Shown one piece after another: positions 3,323 through 11,467 of a stretch of 34,875 nt of DNA. The notes beneath the pieces are model-generated. The model made no database searches. It had not been told where the DNA came from and worked only from the letters and a program-made list of their open reading frames with translations. How positions within the stretch are numbered: the stretch's first letter is position 1; the number at the start of each line of letters is the position of its first letter. The position numbers and the translations under genes were made by a program. The DNA lies in IMG/VR virus record IMGVR_UViG_3300032296_001410, positions 1-34,875 of that record; one strand, written 5' to 3'. This DNA is from a virus.

Positions 3323-3505
3323 ATGGACCGCGCAGACCGTTACAGAGTATTCACCATGCCGCAGTCTAAGTTTGACCAACAACGTGGTAAAGATTCAATG
3401 TATCTTGTGAGAGACCTTGTAGCCGTGCATCCTGATGTTATGGGTCTTGAGCTCAATGCAGCACAGACCATGTGCAAACTACTCAATGAATCGGAGAAGC
3501 TATGA
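3323..3505 (+). CDS. small hypothetical protein between ATPase and VWA genes (60 aa)
   Basis: The start at 3323 has a strong ribosome site (AAGGAGGAGGTATG) nine bases behind the ATPase stop, and the stop overlaps the VWA gene by ATGA. The product is mixed alpha/beta in composition; residues 1-12 could be a strand followed by a helix in the second half (AAQTMCKLLNESEKL). Its position inside the ATPase-VWA pair suggests an accessory or adaptor for that pair, which is inference from context. No family recognised. Confidence 0.65.
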   Translation: MDRADRYRVFTMPQSKFDQQRGKDSMYLVRDLVAVHPDVMGLELNAAQTMCKLLNESEKL

Positions 3506-4662
3506 AACTCACAGCAGAGCAACGGTTATCCCGCGCACATCTTCACATCGTCAACCACATCAAGCATTGCGCAATCGGCGGTGTGGTGATGTTTGGCAAG
3601 ACGATGGTGGACGAGCGCATACCCACAGCTTGCACGGACGGGTTCACGGTGAAGTATGGCCGCAAGTTCATCGAGGACTTGGACGAGGCCGAGCTGCGGT
3701 TCTTAGTGCTGCACGAGAATTATCACAAAGCGTTCCGGCACATGACGACGTGGCGGCATCTCTACAAGGACGACCCCCAGCTGGCCAACGAAGCGTGTGA
3801 CCACGTCATTAACCTCAAGCTGACCCACATCGACAATGGCGAGGGGTTCATCAAGATGCCCGAGAAATACCCCGGCCCGTGTGACCCGAGGTTCAAGGGC
3901 ATGGACGCAGGGCATGTCTACCGGCTGCTGAAGGAGGAGCAGGAGAAGCGAGGGGGTGGTGGCCGGTCCGGGTTCGACGAGCATGACTGGGATGGTGAGG
4001 AGCAGCTGACCTCAGACCAGCGTGAAAAGATTGCCCAGCAGATTGACCAAGCCCTGCGTCAGGGTGCCATCCTCGCAGCCAAGCGGGGTAGCGGGGGTGA
4101 CCGCACGTTCGCTGAACTGTTGGAGCCCAAGGTCAACTGGCGGGAAGCCCTGCGCGAGTTCGTCACCAGCACCTGTGCCGGTCGGGATATGTCCACATGG
4201 CGTAAGGTCAACCGTCGGTTCGTGTCCAGCGGCATGTATCTGCCGGGGTGTATCAGTGAGGCGATTGGTCGGGTGTTGGTCGGCGTTGACACGTCAGGTT
4301 CAATCGGTGGGCGTGAGCTGCAGGAGTTCATGTCCGAGGTCGTAGGCGTGGCCAAGCAGGTGAACCCCGAGGTGCTGGACTTGGTGTATTGGGACACACA
4401 GGTCGCCGCTCACGAGAAGTATGGGGTGCATGAGCTGGATGGGTTGGAGACCAAGACCAAGCCCGCCGGTGGTGGCGGCACCGCACCCAGCTGCATCACA
4501 GCCTATATGAGCGCACAAAACATCAAACCTGAGTGCGCCATCATTCTGACCGACGGGCATGTAGGCAGCGACTGGGGCGGGGCGTGGCCATGTCCGGTGT
4601 TGTTCGTTATCTGCGGCGGCAACAAGGTCATCGCCCCGGTGGGCAAGACGATTCACATTTAA
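3502..4662 (+). CDS. metallopeptidase-like/VWA protein (DUF2201-type), partner of the AAA+ ATPase
   Basis: The 386-aa product has two parts. Residues 60-105 hold HENYH (71-75), an HExxH zinc site, followed by NEACDHVIN (96-104), whose Asp or Asn could be a further ligand, as in DUF2201 putative metallopeptidase domains. Residues 255-386 are a VWA fold with an intact MIDAS: DTSGS (263-267), the GGGGT loop (323-327) and LTDGH (349-353). A glycine-rich acidic linker separates them. VWA proteins are the usual partners of MoxR/CobS ATPases, so this and the gene at 2222 probably act as one machine. Start overlaps the preceding stop. Whether it cuts protein is unknown. Confidence 0.88.
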   Translation: MKLTAEQRLSRAHLHIVNHIKHCAIGGVVMFGKTMVDERIPTACTDGFTVKYGRKFIEDLDEAELRFLVLHENYHKAFRHMTTWRHLYKDDPQLANEACDHVINLKLTHIDNGEGFIKMPEKYPGPCDPRFKGMDAGHVYRLLKEEQEKRGGGGRSGFDEHDWDGEEQLTSDQREKIAQQIDQALRQGAILAAKRGSGGDRTFAELLEPKVNWREALREFVTSTCAGRDMSTWRKVNRRFVSSGMYLPGCISEAIGRVLVGVDTSGSIGGRELQEFMSEVVGVAKQVNPEVLDLVYWDTQVAAHEKYGVHELDGLETKTKPAGGGGTAPSCITAYMSAQNIKPECAIILTDGHVGSDWGGAWPCPVLFVICGGNKVIAPVGKTIHI

Positions 4663-5591: not shown

Positions 5592-6469
5592 GCATTACTA
5601 ACAACGGCGTATTGGTTGACCTGAACATCTCTGTATGGACGGGTCGTAAGATGGATCGCAAGGTCAGCGGCGAGGTGGACGCGGCCAAGAACACCCGCAC
5701 AAAAGCCGGTAACTATCACAAAAACCTGTTCGCTGGCACGGACAAACTGGAGCGGGTCAATTCAATCGCTGGGAAAATCCGAAACTGGCATCTGCGCGAG
5801 ACCCTTCCATGGTCAGATACCGGCACTCGGCTGCTGCCGATGGCAAACTTCTTTCACTATAAGCAAGAGCTTTCCACAATGGAGAATGAGTTCAACGCGG
5901 CGGTGCAGGATTTTCTGACGTATTACCCAAATCTCATCTCGGCTGCGGCGTTCCAAATCGGCACATTGTTTAACCGTGATGACTATCCCAGCGAGGATAA
6001 GATTAAACATAAGTTCAGCGTTCGCACGGCGTTCCATCCGGTGCCTTTGTCTGGCGACTTCCGGGTTGATTCGGATGCTGCGACGCAGCAGGAGTTGCGC
6101 GAAAGCTATGAAAAGTTGTATCGTGAGAAAGAAGAAGCCACAGCAAAAGAACTTTGGAGTAGACTACATGAATACCTGACGACTTTGGTTGACAGGTTGG
6201 AGAAGAAGCAGAAAGCGATTGAATCATCCGCAAGCGGCGATAAGACCAAGGCGGGGCAGCTTCACGAATCTCATCTGGAGAATGGTGTTGAGCTGTGCAG
6301 TTTACTCACTCGCTTGAATGTAATGAATGACCCGACGTTAGAAGCAGCACGCAAGCATCTTGAAGAAGCCCTGTCCGGGGTTACGATCAAGGACCTCCGC
6401 ACAAGCGAAGGTGTGCGCAATGACGTCAAGGCGCGGGTGCAGGACATACTGGGTAAATTTGACTGGTGA
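5588..6469 (+). CDS. conserved phage protein, probably DUF3150-like (293 aa)
   Basis: Start overlaps the preceding stop, with AAAGGAGAACGGCAATG. The product begins with a short beta segment, VLVDLNISVWTGRKMDRKVS (residues 8-27), followed by a long helical body; residues 190-215 are strongly coiled-coil-like (LVDRLEKKQKAIES). From memory this matches a family of phage and bacterial proteins (DUF3150 or close to it) found beside MoxR-type ATPases and VWA proteins, which is also its setting here. I read the three genes at 2222, 3502 and 5588 as a possible functional set. The family name is from recall and could not be checked. Confidence 0.7.
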   Translation: MSITNNGVLVDLNISVWTGRKMDRKVSGEVDAAKNTRTKAGNYHKNLFAGTDKLERVNSIAGKIRNWHLRETLPWSDTGTRLLPMANFFHYKQELSTMENEFNAAVQDFLTYYPNLISAAAFQIGTLFNRDDYPSEDKIKHKFSVRTAFHPVPLSGDFRVDSDAATQQELRESYEKLYREKEEATAKELWSRLHEYLTTLVDRLEKKQKAIESSASGDKTKAGQLHESHLENGVELCSLLTRLNVMNDPTLEAARKHLEEALSGVTIKDLRTSEGVRNDVKARVQDILGKFDW

Positions 6470-6476
6470 GGAAAAC

Positions 6477-6677
6477 ATGGCAACAAAGTTAAGTGGTGGT
6501 AAAGAGATCGTCCGTGAACTGGCGATTGCTGTGCAGGATGCTGGTGCGCGGGAGTTGATCGTTACGGTGCGCGGGGACGGAATAATGTTCCTGCGTGCCA
6601 AGGGTATGCAGCGCCAAGTGATGTGGAAACTCGACGCGCTGTATGAGAAGGGTATTAAGGAAGGAAGAAGTGCGTAA
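6477..6677 (+). CDS. small hypothetical protein (66 aa)
   Basis: The ATG at 6477 follows the preceding stop by seven bases with TGAGGAAAAC as ribosome site; the frame stays open upstream, but that part lies within the 293-aa gene and is not needed. The product has a helix (GGKEIVRELAIAVQDAG), a strand pair (ARELIVTVRGDGIMFLRAKG) and a final helix, so it is probably a compact beta-alpha domain. RGDGIMF resembles short strand-turn motifs of phage small proteins. Function unknown. Confidence 0.7.
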   Translation: MATKLSGGKEIVRELAIAVQDAGARELIVTVRGDGIMFLRAKGMQRQVMWKLDALYEKGIKEGRSA

Positions 6678-6703: not shown

Positions 6704-7579
6704 ATGAAACAAGCAACCACTGTAAAAGTTCCAAGCTATAGATTAAATCCCCCTGTTTTGGAGACCATAACTCCAACCAAAGCCCATACATGGCTAAACA
6801 GAAATACTAGCAACCGAAAACTTAGGGATGGTTGGGTAGAAAAATACGCTTCCGATATGCGAGCGGGTAAGTGGACAGAGTGCATTGTGCCCATTGTGTT
6901 TTACGAGAACGGTGACATTGCAGATGGGCAGCACCGATTGTGGGCGATCATTGAGTCTGATACCCCGCAACGGTTTTTTGTACTACATGGGTTAACTAGA
7001 GAAGCAGGGCTCAACATCGACACGGGTGGCGGTCGCAACCTAGTGGACAACGCTCGTATAAGCGGGCTGAACATGGACATCACCAACGAAATGACTGCAG
7101 CTGCACGAGCACTGGAGTCTGGTAACCGCACGAGCGCGGCAATGTCCAATTCTTCTTTGTTGGCTATTGTTGATAAACATAAAGACGCTTTGAAGTGGGT
7201 GTGCTCGCATGGTCCTCGCGGTAAGGGTTTGCGTAACCAGTGCATTTTGGCGGCGGTTGCTAGGGCGTGGTACCACACAGACGACAAGGAAAGGCTGGCA
7301 CGGTTCTGCCAAGTTGTATCGACTGGCATGATGCAAGACGCTAGCGAATCGGCGGCGGTGGCACTTCGTAATTTGTTTTTGGCGAACCGCAACGTCCATT
7401 TAAATCAGTTATTTAGGGCGAATTTTTTGCTCTCTCAGTCCGCAATCAAGGCATTCATGAAGGGCAATCCGATTACCCGACTCCGTTCCCCGACAGAAGA
7501 GCCGTATCCGCTGACCACGAAGCCGCTCAATGTTGCGCACGCCAAACTTGGTAGGCCCAAAAAACAAAAGGCAACGTAA
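6704..7579 (+). CDS. ParB-like nuclease-fold phage protein (291 aa)
   Basis: The leader is CTAAGGAGAAGTCATG. Residues 20-85 look like a ParB N-terminal/sulfiredoxin-type domain: VEKYASDMRAGKW precedes the motif DGQHRLW (residues 74-80), the signature of the CTP- or ATP-binding pocket of ParB-like proteins. The remaining 200 residues are helical, end in a basic tail (RPKKQKAT) and lack the classical ParB HTH signature that I can see. No ParA-type ATPase is nearby, so plasmid-style partitioning is unlikely; a regulatory or DNA-processing role is more probable. It overlaps the nuclease gene at 7579 (TAATG). Confidence 0.8.
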   Translation: MKQATTVKVPSYRLNPPVLETITPTKAHTWLNRNTSNRKLRDGWVEKYASDMRAGKWTECIVPIVFYENGDIADGQHRLWAIIESDTPQRFFVLHGLTREAGLNIDTGGGRNLVDNARISGLNMDITNEMTAAARALESGNRTSAAMSNSSLLAIVDKHKDALKWVCSHGPRGKGLRNQCILAAVARAWYHTDDKERLARFCQVVSTGMMQDASESAAVALRNLFLANRNVHLNQLFRANFLLSQSAIKAFMKGNPITRLRSPTEEPYPLTTKPLNVAHAKLGRPKKQKAT

Positions 7580-7875
7580 TGGCCACCACCCCAGAGTCCA
7601 AGGTTAAAAAAAAGGTCGTTGACATTCTGAAAGCGGCAGGGGCGTGGTATTGCTTTCCTGTCGCCTCTGGGTATGGCCGGTCGGGGATACCCGATATCTT
7701 GGCGTGTTGGGACGGTGAGTTTGTAGCTATTGAATGTAAGGCCAATGGTGGCCGCACCACGGCACTGCAAGCCCGAGAACTTGAGCGTATCAAGCAAGCT
7801 AATGGCAGGGCGTGGGTGATCGACGAGAGCAAAATAGACGAGCTTCGAGCGTACTTCGAGAACCTCGCTAACTAA
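7579..7875 (+). CDS. VRR-NUC domain nuclease
   Basis: The 98-aa product is a stand-alone VRR-NUC (PD-(D/E)xK) nuclease: Glu-6 in the first helix, the GIPDI motif with Asp-39, then EFVAIECKA with Glu-52 and Lys-54, and Gln-64 (TALQ) in the following helix. Its length is normal for the phage form. Such proteins resemble Holliday-junction and flap-type nucleases and commonly accompany SNF2 helicases and family A polymerases in phages, as here. Its start overlaps the ParB-like gene's stop, so the two are co-translated. Substrate specificity is not visible. Confidence 0.9.
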   Translation: MATTPESKVKKKVVDILKAAGAWYCFPVASGYGRSGIPDILACWDGEFVAIECKANGGRTTALQARELERIKQANGRAWVIDESKIDELRAYFENLAN

Positions 7876-7998
7876 TACCAGCCCCAGCTCCAACCGTAGG
7901 CGCGGCTGCGGTAATCAGCTTGAATGACAGACCTTGGGGCAGCTCATAATTGGAGGTAATTCAGGCACCGCGCACTTTCTAACTTTAAGGAGAATCGT

Positions 7999-8193
7999 AT
8001 GGGAGCATTAGAGATTCCAAAATATGTGCAACAGCTATACGCTTACTTTGGTATACCAACGTCAGAGTGGGGGGAACATTTCACGCAGGACAGAGGGCTG
8101 CGCACTGGCCTTCGTCCAGAAGTAGCAGAGGTGTATTCAATGCTGCACCGTGAGTTACAACAAGCTGGAAAACTTAAAGGAGAAGTGAAATGA
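7999..8193 (+). CDS. small hypothetical protein (64 aa)
   Basis: The gene follows a 123-bp gap (7876-7998) in which I find no hairpin terminator, tRNA or longer reading frame. It has a strong ribosome site (TTTAAGGAGAATCGTATG) and is ATGA-coupled to the next gene. The product is mostly helical (residues 6-20 and 40-64) and could be a helix-turn-helix-like or adaptor protein; no motif settles this. The gap upstream could carry a promoter, but no convincing -35/-10 pair was seen. Confidence 0.65.
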   Translation: MGALEIPKYVQQLYAYFGIPTSEWGEHFTQDRGLRTGLRPEVAEVYSMLHRELQQAGKLKGEVK

Positions 8194-8867
8194 ACGCTGT
8201 TACAGAAAAACATATTAAAGAGTCAACTGTTGTCATCACTCCGCCGCGTTTTGCTACGGTGGAATTAGTTCTCAACGGCACGTCGCCGTTGGTCATTGAA
8301 CGGTTCAGCAAGAAGGCCGAGCTTATGGCCAAGATGCAGGAAGGCAAGAGCGCGGGTAGTAAGAAAACCCGCACTGCGCGGGACTACGAAAAGGAGACAG
8401 AAGAGGCGCGGTATCGTTCTGATGAAGGCTGGGAGGGCATGAACGCTGCTGCGTTTCGTGCAGGGATGATTAGCGCGTGCCGCTTGGTCGGATTCAAAAT
8501 GACACTGGCTAAACTGTCTTGCTTTATTGAGGCAGATGGGTGGGATGCTATTGATTCGTTACCGTTGATTCGTATTTACGGGGCAAGCAATCAATACTCA
8601 GCGCATACGCGTAATGCTACCGGGGTTGTCGATGTGCGCGTGCGTCCCATGTATAAAAAGTGGGCTGCGAAGTTGCGCGTCAAATACGACCAAGACCAAT
8701 TCAGCACTCAAGACATCTTTAATCTGATCTCAAGGGTCGGAGCGCAGGTTGGCATTGGCGCGGGTCGTCCGGATAGCAAAGCATCTGCGGGGATGGGTTT
8801 TGGTACGTTTGAAATTGTAGACGATGAAAGGAGAGAGCACATCAAAAAGCAGTTTGGTATTGAGTAG
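8190..8867 (+). CDS. conserved phage protein (225 aa)
   Basis: Leader AAAGGAGAAGTGAAATG, start within the previous stop. The sequence has three recognisable blocks: an early strand plus GTSPLVIERFSKKA (residues 30-43), a Lys/Arg-rich helix (residues 51-68), and MISACRLVGFKMTLAKLSCF (residues 93-112), ending with RPDSKASAGMGFGTFEI. I recognise this as a family widespread in environmental siphophages and podophages, located near recombination genes and without a proven function. Its neighbours (VRR-NUC nuclease, SNF2 helicase) suggest DNA metabolism. The unusual 5-bp-rhythm tract begins immediately after its stop. Confidence 0.8.
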   Translation: MNAVTEKHIKESTVVITPPRFATVELVLNGTSPLVIERFSKKAELMAKMQEGKSAGSKKTRTARDYEKETEEARYRSDEGWEGMNAAAFRAGMISACRLVGFKMTLAKLSCFIEADGWDAIDSLPLIRIYGASNQYSAHTRNATGVVDVRVRPMYKKWAAKLRVKYDQDQFSTQDIFNLISRVGAQVGIGAGRPDSKASAGMGFGTFEIVDDERREHIKKQFGIE

Positions 8868-8869
8868 TA

Positions 8870-9125
8870 CGGCAGGCCTGTAAGGGCTAGGTAAGGCCAG
8901 GTGGGGTCGGGTAAGTCACGGCAGGTAAGGTTGGGAGTGGCTAGGCCGGGTTTGGTAATACATGATTGGGTATGTCAAGTCACGGCAGGTAAGGCCCGGT
9001 GCAGTGGGGCTAGGCAGGACCCGGTATGTCAGGGTTCGGTATGTCGAGGTGAGGCAGGTTTGGCATGTAGCGGTTGGGCGCAGTAGGGCGCGGTATGGCT
9101 CGGTACGGTAACTCACGGCAGGCAT
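8870..9125 (+). repeat. non-coding tract with degenerate 5-bp (GGNNN) periodicity
   Basis: The gap 8868-9142 is the longest without a gene in the window. Read in steps of five it resolves into units such as GGTAA, GGCCA, GGTGG, GGTCG, GGCAG, GGTAT, with GG recurring about every five bases and occasional 1-bp slips. Three longer copies stand out: TCACGGCAGGTAAGG at 8916 and 8980 and TCACGGCAGG at 9113. The + strand is rich in G with few CC pairs, so the strands are strongly asymmetric. Open frames across it (for instance 8901-9086) have low-complexity products and no ribosome site, so I treat it as non-coding. Confidence 0.85.
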
Positions 9126-9142
9126 TTACAAAGGAGAAGATA

Positions 9143-9604
9143 ATGAATGAAGAACGTAAATTTTTAGAGCGCATGGCAACAAAAAACGGCGGGCTGCTGC
9201 TTGTAGACGATGTTTTAGCGGCAGCAAAAGACAAGCGTTGTGTATTGCACAAGCACTTTGAATGGGACGACACAGAAGCGGCGCGGCAGTACCGCCGCGA
9301 ACAGGCACGAAATCTTATACAAAAGTGCCGTGTTCAAATTGCTACAGCCCCTGATGTGTCAATCCGCGCATTTGTGTCGTTGCAAAGTGACCAAATATCA
9401 GGGGGCGGTTATCGCATGACTGCGACAGTATTGGATGACGCAGAGCTGAAAGCGCAGTTGTTGGGGGATATTCGGTTGACAATAGAGCGCTGGAGCCGGA
9501 AGCTGTATTTATTGGACTCAAATATTGTCGGCCTAATTCAACAGCTGGAAGTTAGTATTCAAGACGAGCAAAACCATGCCGAAAAGGGGAGAGCCGCCGC
9601 ATGA
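9143..9604 (+). CDS. conserved hypothetical phage protein (153 aa)
   Basis: I place the start at 9143, where AAAGGAGAAGATAATG gives a strong ribosome site; the same frame is open further upstream but only through the repeat tract. The N-terminal 70 residues contain HKHFEWDDTEAARQYRREQA, a pattern I recognise from phage proteins near recombinases and replication genes. The middle is beta-like (VSIRAFVSLQSDQISGGGYR), and the C-terminal part is helical. Function unknown. ATGA overlap with the next gene. Confidence 0.75.
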   Translation: MNEERKFLERMATKNGGLLLVDDVLAAAKDKRCVLHKHFEWDDTEAARQYRREQARNLIQKCRVQIATAPDVSIRAFVSLQSDQISGGGYRMTATVLDDAELKAQLLGDIRLTIERWSRKLYLLDSNIVGLIQQLEVSIQDEQNHAEKGRAAA

Positions 9605-9831
9605 AACCTTACTTTATCGACGGGCCGGTGCTGATCAAGCGCATGGCTGTGGTGCTGGTCGCTGGGTTGTTTGTTGGTGCAGCAGCGGCAGCGGTTGGAT
9701 ATAGAACCAAAGAAGTAGAACCCGCCGCGCAGAAGGTAGCCTTGGCTGTATGCCCGATGCCCCAGACTGAAGGGGAGATGACGATATACGTTGTTGAGAA
9801 TGGCGCAATCAAATGCTGGAGGTGGAAATGA
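9601..9831 (+). CDS. small membrane-anchored protein (76 aa)
   Basis: Residues 12-34 (KRMAVVLVAGLFVGAAAAAV and flanks) form one hydrophobic helix preceded by Lys-13/Arg-14, so the protein is an N-terminal signal anchor or an uncleaved signal with about 45 residues outside. The outer part has two cysteines (Cys-51, Cys-72) that could form a disulfide. Start and stop both overlap neighbours (ATGA). Phage proteins of this type may act in the envelope, for example in lysis or exclusion; there is no direct evidence of either. Confidence 0.65.
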   Translation: MKPYFIDGPVLIKRMAVVLVAGLFVGAAAAAVGYRTKEVEPAAQKVALAVCPMPQTEGEMTIYVVENGAIKCWRWK

Positions 9832-10960: not shown

Positions 10961-11467
10961 ATGAGCGCAAAAAACACACCAAGAACTTTTTGGTCTCGAG
11001 TAGATAGAGGAGACCCCGGCAGCTGCTGGAATTGGTTGGGAGCCCAGACCAGCAGCGGGTACGGCAATCTTACATGGCACGGGCAGCATGTTCAGGCTCA
11101 CCGAGTGGCGTATTTTCTGCATCACGGCGGCATTGGGTTGCATACAAATTTCCGACAGATAGGAGTGGCAAGACGGTACCGCCGGTTCGTTTTGCATAGA
11201 TGCGACAACCGGTTGTGTTGTAACCCCGGGCATTTGTTTTTGGGCTCTATGCGGGCGAACCAACTCGATGCGTATGCCAAGGGGAGAAAAACACAACCGC
11301 AGAGCCAGCATGTAAATGCCAAGCTCACCGCGACCCAAGTTACTGAGATACGGCAGCTTTATGATGCCGGGGAAATGCACCAAATACCTTTGGCCAGAGC
11401 ATACGGCGTATCTCAGCGGGTCATCAGTCTTATTGTCAGACGAGAGTCATACAAGGATATCAAATGA
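10961..11467 (+). CDS. HNH homing-type endonuclease
   Basis: The 168-aa product has the HNH_3 signature typical of free-standing homing endonucleases: VLHRCDNRLCCNPGHLFLGS with His-79, Cys-81, Cys-86, Asn-88 and His-91, followed by the usual NQLDAYAKGRK helix. Residues 119-160 form a helix-turn-helix-like DNA-binding tail (LARAYGVSQRVISLIVR). The N-terminal CWNW and the aromatic segment are typical of the family. No ribosome site precedes the ATG, and a promoter-like sequence does. It sits directly before the DNA polymerase gene and overlaps it by ATGA, a favoured site for such elements. Confidence 0.88.
   Translation: MSAKNTPRTFWSRVDRGDPGSCWNWLGAQTSSGYGNLTWHGQHVQAHRVAYFLHHGGIGLHTNFRQIGVARRYRRFVLHRCDNRLCCNPGHLFLGSMRANQLDAYAKGRKTQPQSQHVNAKLTATQVTEIRQLYDAGEMHQIPLARAYGVSQRVISLIVRRESYKDIK

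What the first reader, a model, noticed from the sequence alone, without database searches (positions are those of the whole stretch)
8868..9142. Non-coding tract with a degenerate 5-bp rhythm (GGNNN) in the middle of a coupled gene block
About 250 bp break into 5-base units with GG recurring every five bases, with a few 1-bp phase slips, while the three other bases vary. The + strand is G-rich, and TCACGGCAGG occurs three times (8916, 8980, 9113). This is neither a simple tandem repeat nor a coding pattern, and it interrupts a block whose other genes overlap. Possible meanings: a replication or recombination locus (nearby genes are recombination-type), an array of two-layer G-quadruplex-forming RNA or DNA, a protein-binding array read at half-helical steps, or slippage-driven sequence. 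I know of no described element with this property.
Basis: partly seen in the sequence, partly recalled or inferred. Interest (0 to 1): 0.78.

Follow-up and report, generated by a model that had tools for sequence, protein, structure and literature searches.

The report
Phage VIPR guide-RNA array targeting integrases
The odd G-rich stretch is a phage-encoded set of RNA guides of the newly described VIPR type (a possible forerunner of CRISPR): the gene before it encodes the guide-binding protein, and two of its four guides spell conserved parts of integrase genes of rival mobile elements.

Summary
The rhythm is real and is now explained. Window 8868-9142 is a vrRNA array of a VIPR system (Viral Interference Programmable Repeat, preprint PMC13142463, April/June 2026). 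The gene before it (8190-8867) is the Vipr protein: its family profile matches the solved SUSP1 Vipr (PDB 36pp, E=9e-8) and its predicted fold matches CRISPR RAMPs (Csm3/Cas7). The tract parses into four guides of 9-13 GGY-NN pentamers, punctuated by a 4-nt GGCA; these are the 'phase slips'. Of 80 vipr homologue loci, 79 carry such a tract directly downstream (the exception is a truncated contig); 24 of 25 well-flanked tracts found blind carry vipr. Read with the published rule (NN pairs, one target base skipped), guide D spells the antisense of the tyrosine-integrase motif VEMALAH(A/T)IK, with every skipped base at a codon wobble position (17 genome hits versus about 1 by chance, at least 14 of them integrases). 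Guide B spells the catalytic-tyrosine motif QML(K/S)RYTHL of a second integrase family. Guides A and C are unresolved. The system is known; the decoded targets, the GGCA punctuation and the rapid turnover of guides are what this locus adds. Expression and activity were not tested.

The parts
8190..8867 (+). vipr gene: 225-aa RAMP protein (guide-RNA-binding subunit), with C-terminal glycine-rich loop
   Evidence: Profile of the family hits PDB 36pp 'SUSP1 Vipr protein' E=9e-8 and 6e-4 with the narrower profile. AF2 model pLDDT 77; the 50 best Foldseek hits in the PDB are CRISPR type III/VII RAMP complexes, best E=2.7e-5.
8871..9120 (+). vrRNA array: four guides of GGY-NN pentamers separated by GGCA
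   Evidence: Periodicity, parse, same kind of tract next to vipr in 79 of 80 loci, blind tract search returns vipr in 24 of 25 well-flanked loci.
8875..8923 (+). Guide A (9 pentamers + GGCA): NN = CT AG TA AA CA GG CG | AA AC. Target not found
   Evidence: Parse; only 7 units before the tail, too short for a specific search.
8924..8987 (+). Guide B (12 pentamers + GGCA): NN = AA TG GT TA CG TT AA AT TG AT | AA AC. Spells the antisense of the tyrosine-integrase catalytic motif QML(K/S)RYTHL
   Evidence: 19/20 in L250, 18/20 in L243 and L246, all PF00589-type integrases, skip base at wobble position.
8988..9056 (+). Guide C (13 pentamers + GGCA): NN = AA CC GC GG TA AG CC AT AG TC AT | GA GA. 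Target unresolved
   Evidence: only chance-level or isolated hits.
9057..9120 (+). Guide D (12 pentamers + GGCA): NN = TT AT GC TG GC AG GC AT TC AC | AA AC. Spells the antisense of the P4-type tyrosine-integrase motif VEMALAHAIK
   Evidence: 20/20 in L237; 17 hits in genome contigs against about 0.9 expected, at least 14 in integrases in wobble phase.
9107..9120 (+). Tail-like end of guide D (last two units GGTAA CTCAC plus GGCA); similar ends in A and B (at 8910 and 8974); includes the repeated TCACGGCA(GG)
   Evidence: Last unit is A-rich in the clade (NN entropy 2.99 bits against 3.8-3.9 for other units); the last two units of D do not match the target.
9143..9604 (+). Candidate vap (VIPR accessory protein), 153 aa, phrog_15946, no Pfam domain
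   Evidence: Homologue in 67 of 68 vipr records and 0 of 5 records without vipr; directly 3' of the array. AF2 pLDDT 89 but no significant fold match.

Best explanation
The tract is the guide-RNA array of a phage VIPR system. Inferred: it is transcribed with the vipr gene upstream of it and yields guides of 49-69 nt, each a run of 9-13 GGY-NN units ending in an A-rich unit and GGCA. Inferred from the SUSP1 work: Vipr subunits coat the guide, hold each GGY as scaffold and expose each NN dinucleotide. Supported by sequence here: the NN pairs, with one target base skipped after each pair, spell target DNA so that the skipped base falls on codon wobble positions. Guides D and B thus spell conserved motifs of two families of tyrosine integrase. 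Inferred: binding silences the integrase genes of competing prophages or satellites in the same host, limiting their excision or establishment. The gene at 9143 is the likely accessory protein. Shown by sequence: the protein family, the array grammar, the association and the target match. Not shown: expression, binding, repression.
For: Vipr homology (PDB 36pp, E=9e-8) and RAMP fold. GGY/NN grammar with runs of 9-13 units, as in PMC13142463, which gives 9-16. Tract next to vipr in 79/80 loci; vipr next to blind-found tracts in 24/25 well-flanked loci. Guide D: 17 genome hits against about 0.9 by chance, at least 14 in integrases, all of those antisense with the skip base at codon position 3; 20/20 in L237. 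Guide B: 10 hits against 2 for the reversed control; the best (19/20) and two more are integrases in wobble phase, and the others are out of phase. Clade test: of 531 guides, 14 match the integrase loci with at most 1 mismatch under the 1-nt skip, 0 under 0-nt or 2-nt skip, 1 for unit-shuffled guides. Other guides fall on other integrase motifs (HGFRSSFRDW, KAGKEHRVPL). The same NN strings recur on different scaffolds (GGC/GGT/GTT) in other arrays. No guide matches the phage's own genome (best 14/20).
Against: Targets of guides A and C were not found. No RNA-seq exists for this phage. No structured 3' tail like that of SUSP1 vrRNAs was found, and Rfam gives nothing. The host is unknown, so the integrases found are in distant bacteria, and guide B has no exact match. 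The integrase loci used in the clade test were fetched with the patterns of guides D and B, so their own scores in that test are not independent; the other guides' scores are.
Confidence: 0.93

Rival explanations
1. The tract is an array of two-layer G-quadruplexes (GGN3 repeats) acting as DNA or RNA structure, for example as a regulatory, replication or packaging element.
For: GG every five bases is compatible with G2N3 quadruplexes; strong G bias of the + strand.
Against: The second G is replaced, mostly by T, in about 10% of units, and NN content matters: NN strings recur exactly on different scaffolds and spell integrase motifs. A pure quadruplex needs neither a fixed pyrimidine at position 3 nor specific NN.
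Confidence: 0.03
2. The tract is a DNA-binding or recombination/replication array read as double-stranded DNA by the neighbouring proteins.
For: Tightly linked to two conserved genes; nuclease and replication genes lie nearby.
Against: The neighbour is an RNA-binding-type RAMP homologous to Vipr; the tract is always on the coding strand of vipr, odd for a DNA site; the sequence is not conserved between phages whose Vipr is 99% identical.
Confidence: 0.03
3. Slippage-driven or selfish repeat without function.
For: Length varies from 4 to 24 modules.
Against: Units are not copies of each other: NN entropy is 3.8-3.9 of 4 bits. Near-perfect association with vipr in unrelated phages of cyanobacteria, Mycobacterium and Gordonia. 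Guides match conserved gene motifs in codon phase.
Confidence: 0.01

Closest known systems
VIPR systems (Vipr + vrRNA), type II SUSP1 / Pseudomonas fulva; PMC13142463, PDB 36pp
   Same: Homologous RAMP protein; guides of about 9-16 GGY-NN units in the intergenic DNA next to vipr; NN pair with a 1-nt skip; skip base on codon wobble positions; targets in mobile elements (integrases here; satellites and prophage regulators there).
   Different: Guides here are packed head to tail, 49-69 nt each, separated only by GGCA, with no separate folded tail found; SUSP1 vrRNAs are about 100 nt with an invariable folded tail. The accessory gene is phrog_15946.
CRISPR-Cas type III Csm3 / Cas7 and CRISPR arrays
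   Same: RAMP fold and glycine-rich loop; array of varied guides; guides turn over between close relatives.
   Different: No constant repeats, no cas1/cas2 seen, non-contiguous pairing with a 5-nt rather than 6-nt period; phage-borne.
Uncharacterised vipr homologues in Mycobacterium cluster F phages (Brocalys gp45), Gordonia phages ODay and UmaThurman, and cyanophage Cy-LDV1
   Same: 30-52% identical protein; GGY-NN tracts at the vipr locus of Brocalys, ODay and Cy-LDV1.
   Different: Much cleaner GGC scaffold; in Brocalys the tract lies upstream of the gene; Cy-LDV1 has two tracts. UmaThurman's tract was not examined.

Membership tests
VIPR | Vipr protein: RAMP homologue with RRM core and G-loop | tested here: met
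   HMM hit to SUSP1 Vipr 36pp E=9e-8; Foldseek top 50 all CRISPR RAMP complexes; loop 'GIGAGRPDSKASAGMGFG'.
VIPR | vrRNA with about 9-16 tandem units of fixed GGY and hypervariable NN, next to vipr | tested here: met
   Window guides have 9, 12, 13 and 12 units; some relatives have 7-8.
VIPR | Target recognition by NN with 1-nt skip | tested here: met
   By sequence only: (1-nt skip 14 guides, 0- or 2-nt skip none). Met for guides B and D, unresolved for A and C.
VIPR | Targets lie in competing phages or mobile elements | tested here: met
   Tyrosine integrases with phage-integrase Pfam domains. Direct competition with this phage was not tested (host unknown).
VIPR | Invariable, structured 3' tail on the vrRNA | tested here: inconclusive
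   Only an A-rich last unit plus GGCA; no Rfam match. The preprint says array architectures vary between types.
VIPR | vap accessory gene in the locus | tested here: inconclusive
VIPR | vrRNA expressed and bound by Vipr | not testable with these tools
   Needs RNA-seq or pull-down.
CRISPR-Cas | Array of near-identical repeats separated by spacers, with cas adaptation genes | tested here: not met
   No constant repeat in the tract; none of the window proteins scanned is a cas gene other than the RAMP homologue, and not every ORF was scanned; PADLOC finds nothing in the three locus genes.
Known Rfam RNA family | Covariance-model match | tested here: not met
   No match up to E=1 in 7800-9700.

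The most novel reading that the evidence does not exclude
This clade (the window and its relatives in viral metagenomes) is a VIPR subtype with CRISPR-like compact arrays of 4-24 interchangeable guides punctuated by GGCA, without a separate folded tail, that exchanges guides quickly and aims them at catalytic motifs of tyrosine integrases, so that one guide covers many competing temperate elements despite synonymous variation.
Probability: 0.35. Interest if true: 0.7.

Novelty: new member of a known kind. Interest (0 to 1): 0.55.

Why it matters
VIPR is a months-old class of RNA-guided system proposed as a root of CRISPR. This locus provides an independent sequence test of its decoding rule in a clade far from the two studied ones: 14 guides fit the 1-nt skip and none fit the alternatives. 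It also points to a natural target class, the conserved catalytic motifs of integrases of mobile elements. The homologues in Mycobacterium smegmatis and Gordonia phages give culturable hosts in which integrase silencing can be tested directly.

Tried and rejected
G-quadruplex, DNA-binding-array and slippage readings (see rivals). A target search among about 2 Mb of relatives' contigs gave little: one convincing pair, guide L093:4038 to the ParB-like ORF of L040 (22/24, wobble phase). Guide C patterns gave 9 viral hits at chance level, one isolated 20/22 hit in an exosortase-like gene of a Devosia genome, and chance-level hits in 311 genomes; left unresolved. Guide B viral hits L102 and L103 were out of codon phase and rejected. 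Viral hits of guide D (L104-L106) share MALAHAI-like peptides but only 9 units; not counted. Array polarity (sharing concentrated at the 3' end) is weak and confounded by one very common last module. The fold of the 9143 protein gave no significant PDB match. PADLOC and Rfam gave nothing.

Full report
1. Observation. The tract at 8868-9142 has a strong period of five: GG recurs at lag 5 in 23 of 53 cases against 9.9 expected, and the sum over lags 5-25 is 11 standard deviations above dinucleotide shuffles. TCACGGCAGG occurs three times, only here. No coding pattern fits it.

2. Neighbours. The 225-aa product of 8190-8867 belongs to phrog_4652 (unknown function) and ends in a glycine-rich loop. 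An AlphaFold2 model from 42 relatives (pLDDT 77) gives CRISPR type III and VII RAMP complexes as its 50 best PDB matches (E down to 2.7e-5). A profile of the family hits the solved 'SUSP1 Vipr protein' (36pp) at E=9e-8. The gene after the tract, 9143-9604 (phrog_15946), is found in 67 of 68 records with vipr and in none of 5 without.

3. Association in both directions. Of 80 loci found through the protein, 79 carry a period-5 GG tract directly downstream on the same strand; the exception is cut off by its contig end. Of 79 loci found blind through the tract alone, 58 carry a vipr homologue, and 24 of the 25 with at least 2.5 kb on both sides of the tract. Homologues in cyanophage Cy-LDV1, Mycobacterium phage Brocalys and Gordonia phage ODay have tracts too.

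4. Known system. A full-text search found PMC13142463 (bioRxiv 2026), which describes VIPR: a phage RAMP protein (Vipr) with vrRNAs of 9-16 GGY-NN units. The NN dinucleotides pair with double-stranded DNA with one target base skipped between pairs; competing elements are repressed. All features testable by sequence fit, except that no folded tail is seen.

5. Grammar. A dynamic-programming parse of 84 arrays (80 loci plus the window and three isolate phages; a few near-identical loci included) gives 938 modules, most of 7-13 pentamers, separated by GGCA. Unit composition is G .91, G .89, C .50/T .37/A .13, then NN of nearly maximal diversity. The window has four modules of 9, 12, 13 and 12 units. 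Arrays turn over fast: the window and L024 have 99% identical Vipr but share only the last module. Many guides recur across arrays, in shifted registers and on altered scaffolds, which fits selection on NN.

6. Targets. Guide D read with a 1-nt skip was used to scan 257 Gb of genomes, allowing C or T at one position (the T form is the variant carried by L024). About 0.9 hits are expected by chance; 17 were found, at least 14 in tyrosine integrases at EVVEMALAH(A/T)IKN, all antisense with the skip base at codon position 3 (Pfam on L237). L237 matches 20/20. The window form (GC) fits HAIK and the L024 form (GT) fits HTIK. Guide B, searched in 201 genomes of the family of L237's host, gave 10 hits against 2 for the reversed control. 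The best (19/20) and two more are integrases at the catalytic-tyrosine motif QML(K/S)RYTHL in wobble phase; the other seven are out of phase. One of the three (L243) is in the same genome as the 20/20 hit of D.

7. Clade-level test. Of 531 guides from all arrays against 126 kb of integrase loci, 14 match with at most one mismatch under a 1-nt skip, none under 0 or 2 nt, and 1 after shuffling units. These loci were fetched with D's pattern or by guide B, so D and B are not independent there. Other guides hit other conserved integrase sites (HGFRSSFRDW, KAGKEHRVPL, NKVEAAYR). Another recurrent guide spells QQEFGIAAALSGD of phage family-A DNA polymerases, and one guide of L093 spells a ParB-like gene in L040.

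8. Mechanism and limits. By analogy with SUSP1, Vipr loaded with guides B and D should bind and silence integrase genes of competing temperate elements. Expression, binding and repression are inferred, not shown. Guides A and C, the host, the role of the 9143 protein and the VIPR type remain open.

Noticed in passing
L018:3590-3860 (Mycobacterium phage Brocalys), L019:4598-4763 (Gordonia phage ODay), L017:5628-5817 and 6326-6650 (cyanophage Cy-LDV1): Unannotated GGY-NN tracts next to hypothetical proteins homologous to Vipr in cultured model phages; Cy-LDV1 has two tracts.
   Followed up: partly
L040:2511-2546 (minus strand): A guide of array L093 (module at 4038) matches 22/24 in a ParB-like ORF of another VIPR-carrying phage, skip bases on wobble positions: possible VIPR-versus-VIPR targeting.
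   Followed up: partly
L216:896-921, L218:4769-4794, L220:10783-10808: A guide core recurrent in about a dozen arrays spells QQEFGIAAALSGD of phage family-A DNA polymerases in sense, wobble phase.
   Followed up: partly
L075:812-1991 and L089:3659-4774: Arrays with about 24 guides each, among the longest seen.
   Followed up: no
window 7999-8193: 64-aa ORF overlapping the vipr start, no Pfam, PHROG or PADLOC match; its conservation was not tested.
   Followed up: no
window 7579-7875: 98-aa Hjc/VRR-NUC-like Holliday junction resolvase upstream of the locus.
   Followed up: no
window 3502-4662 and 10961-11467: Two HNH endonuclease genes (phrog_1314, phrog_1872) in the early region.
   Followed up: no
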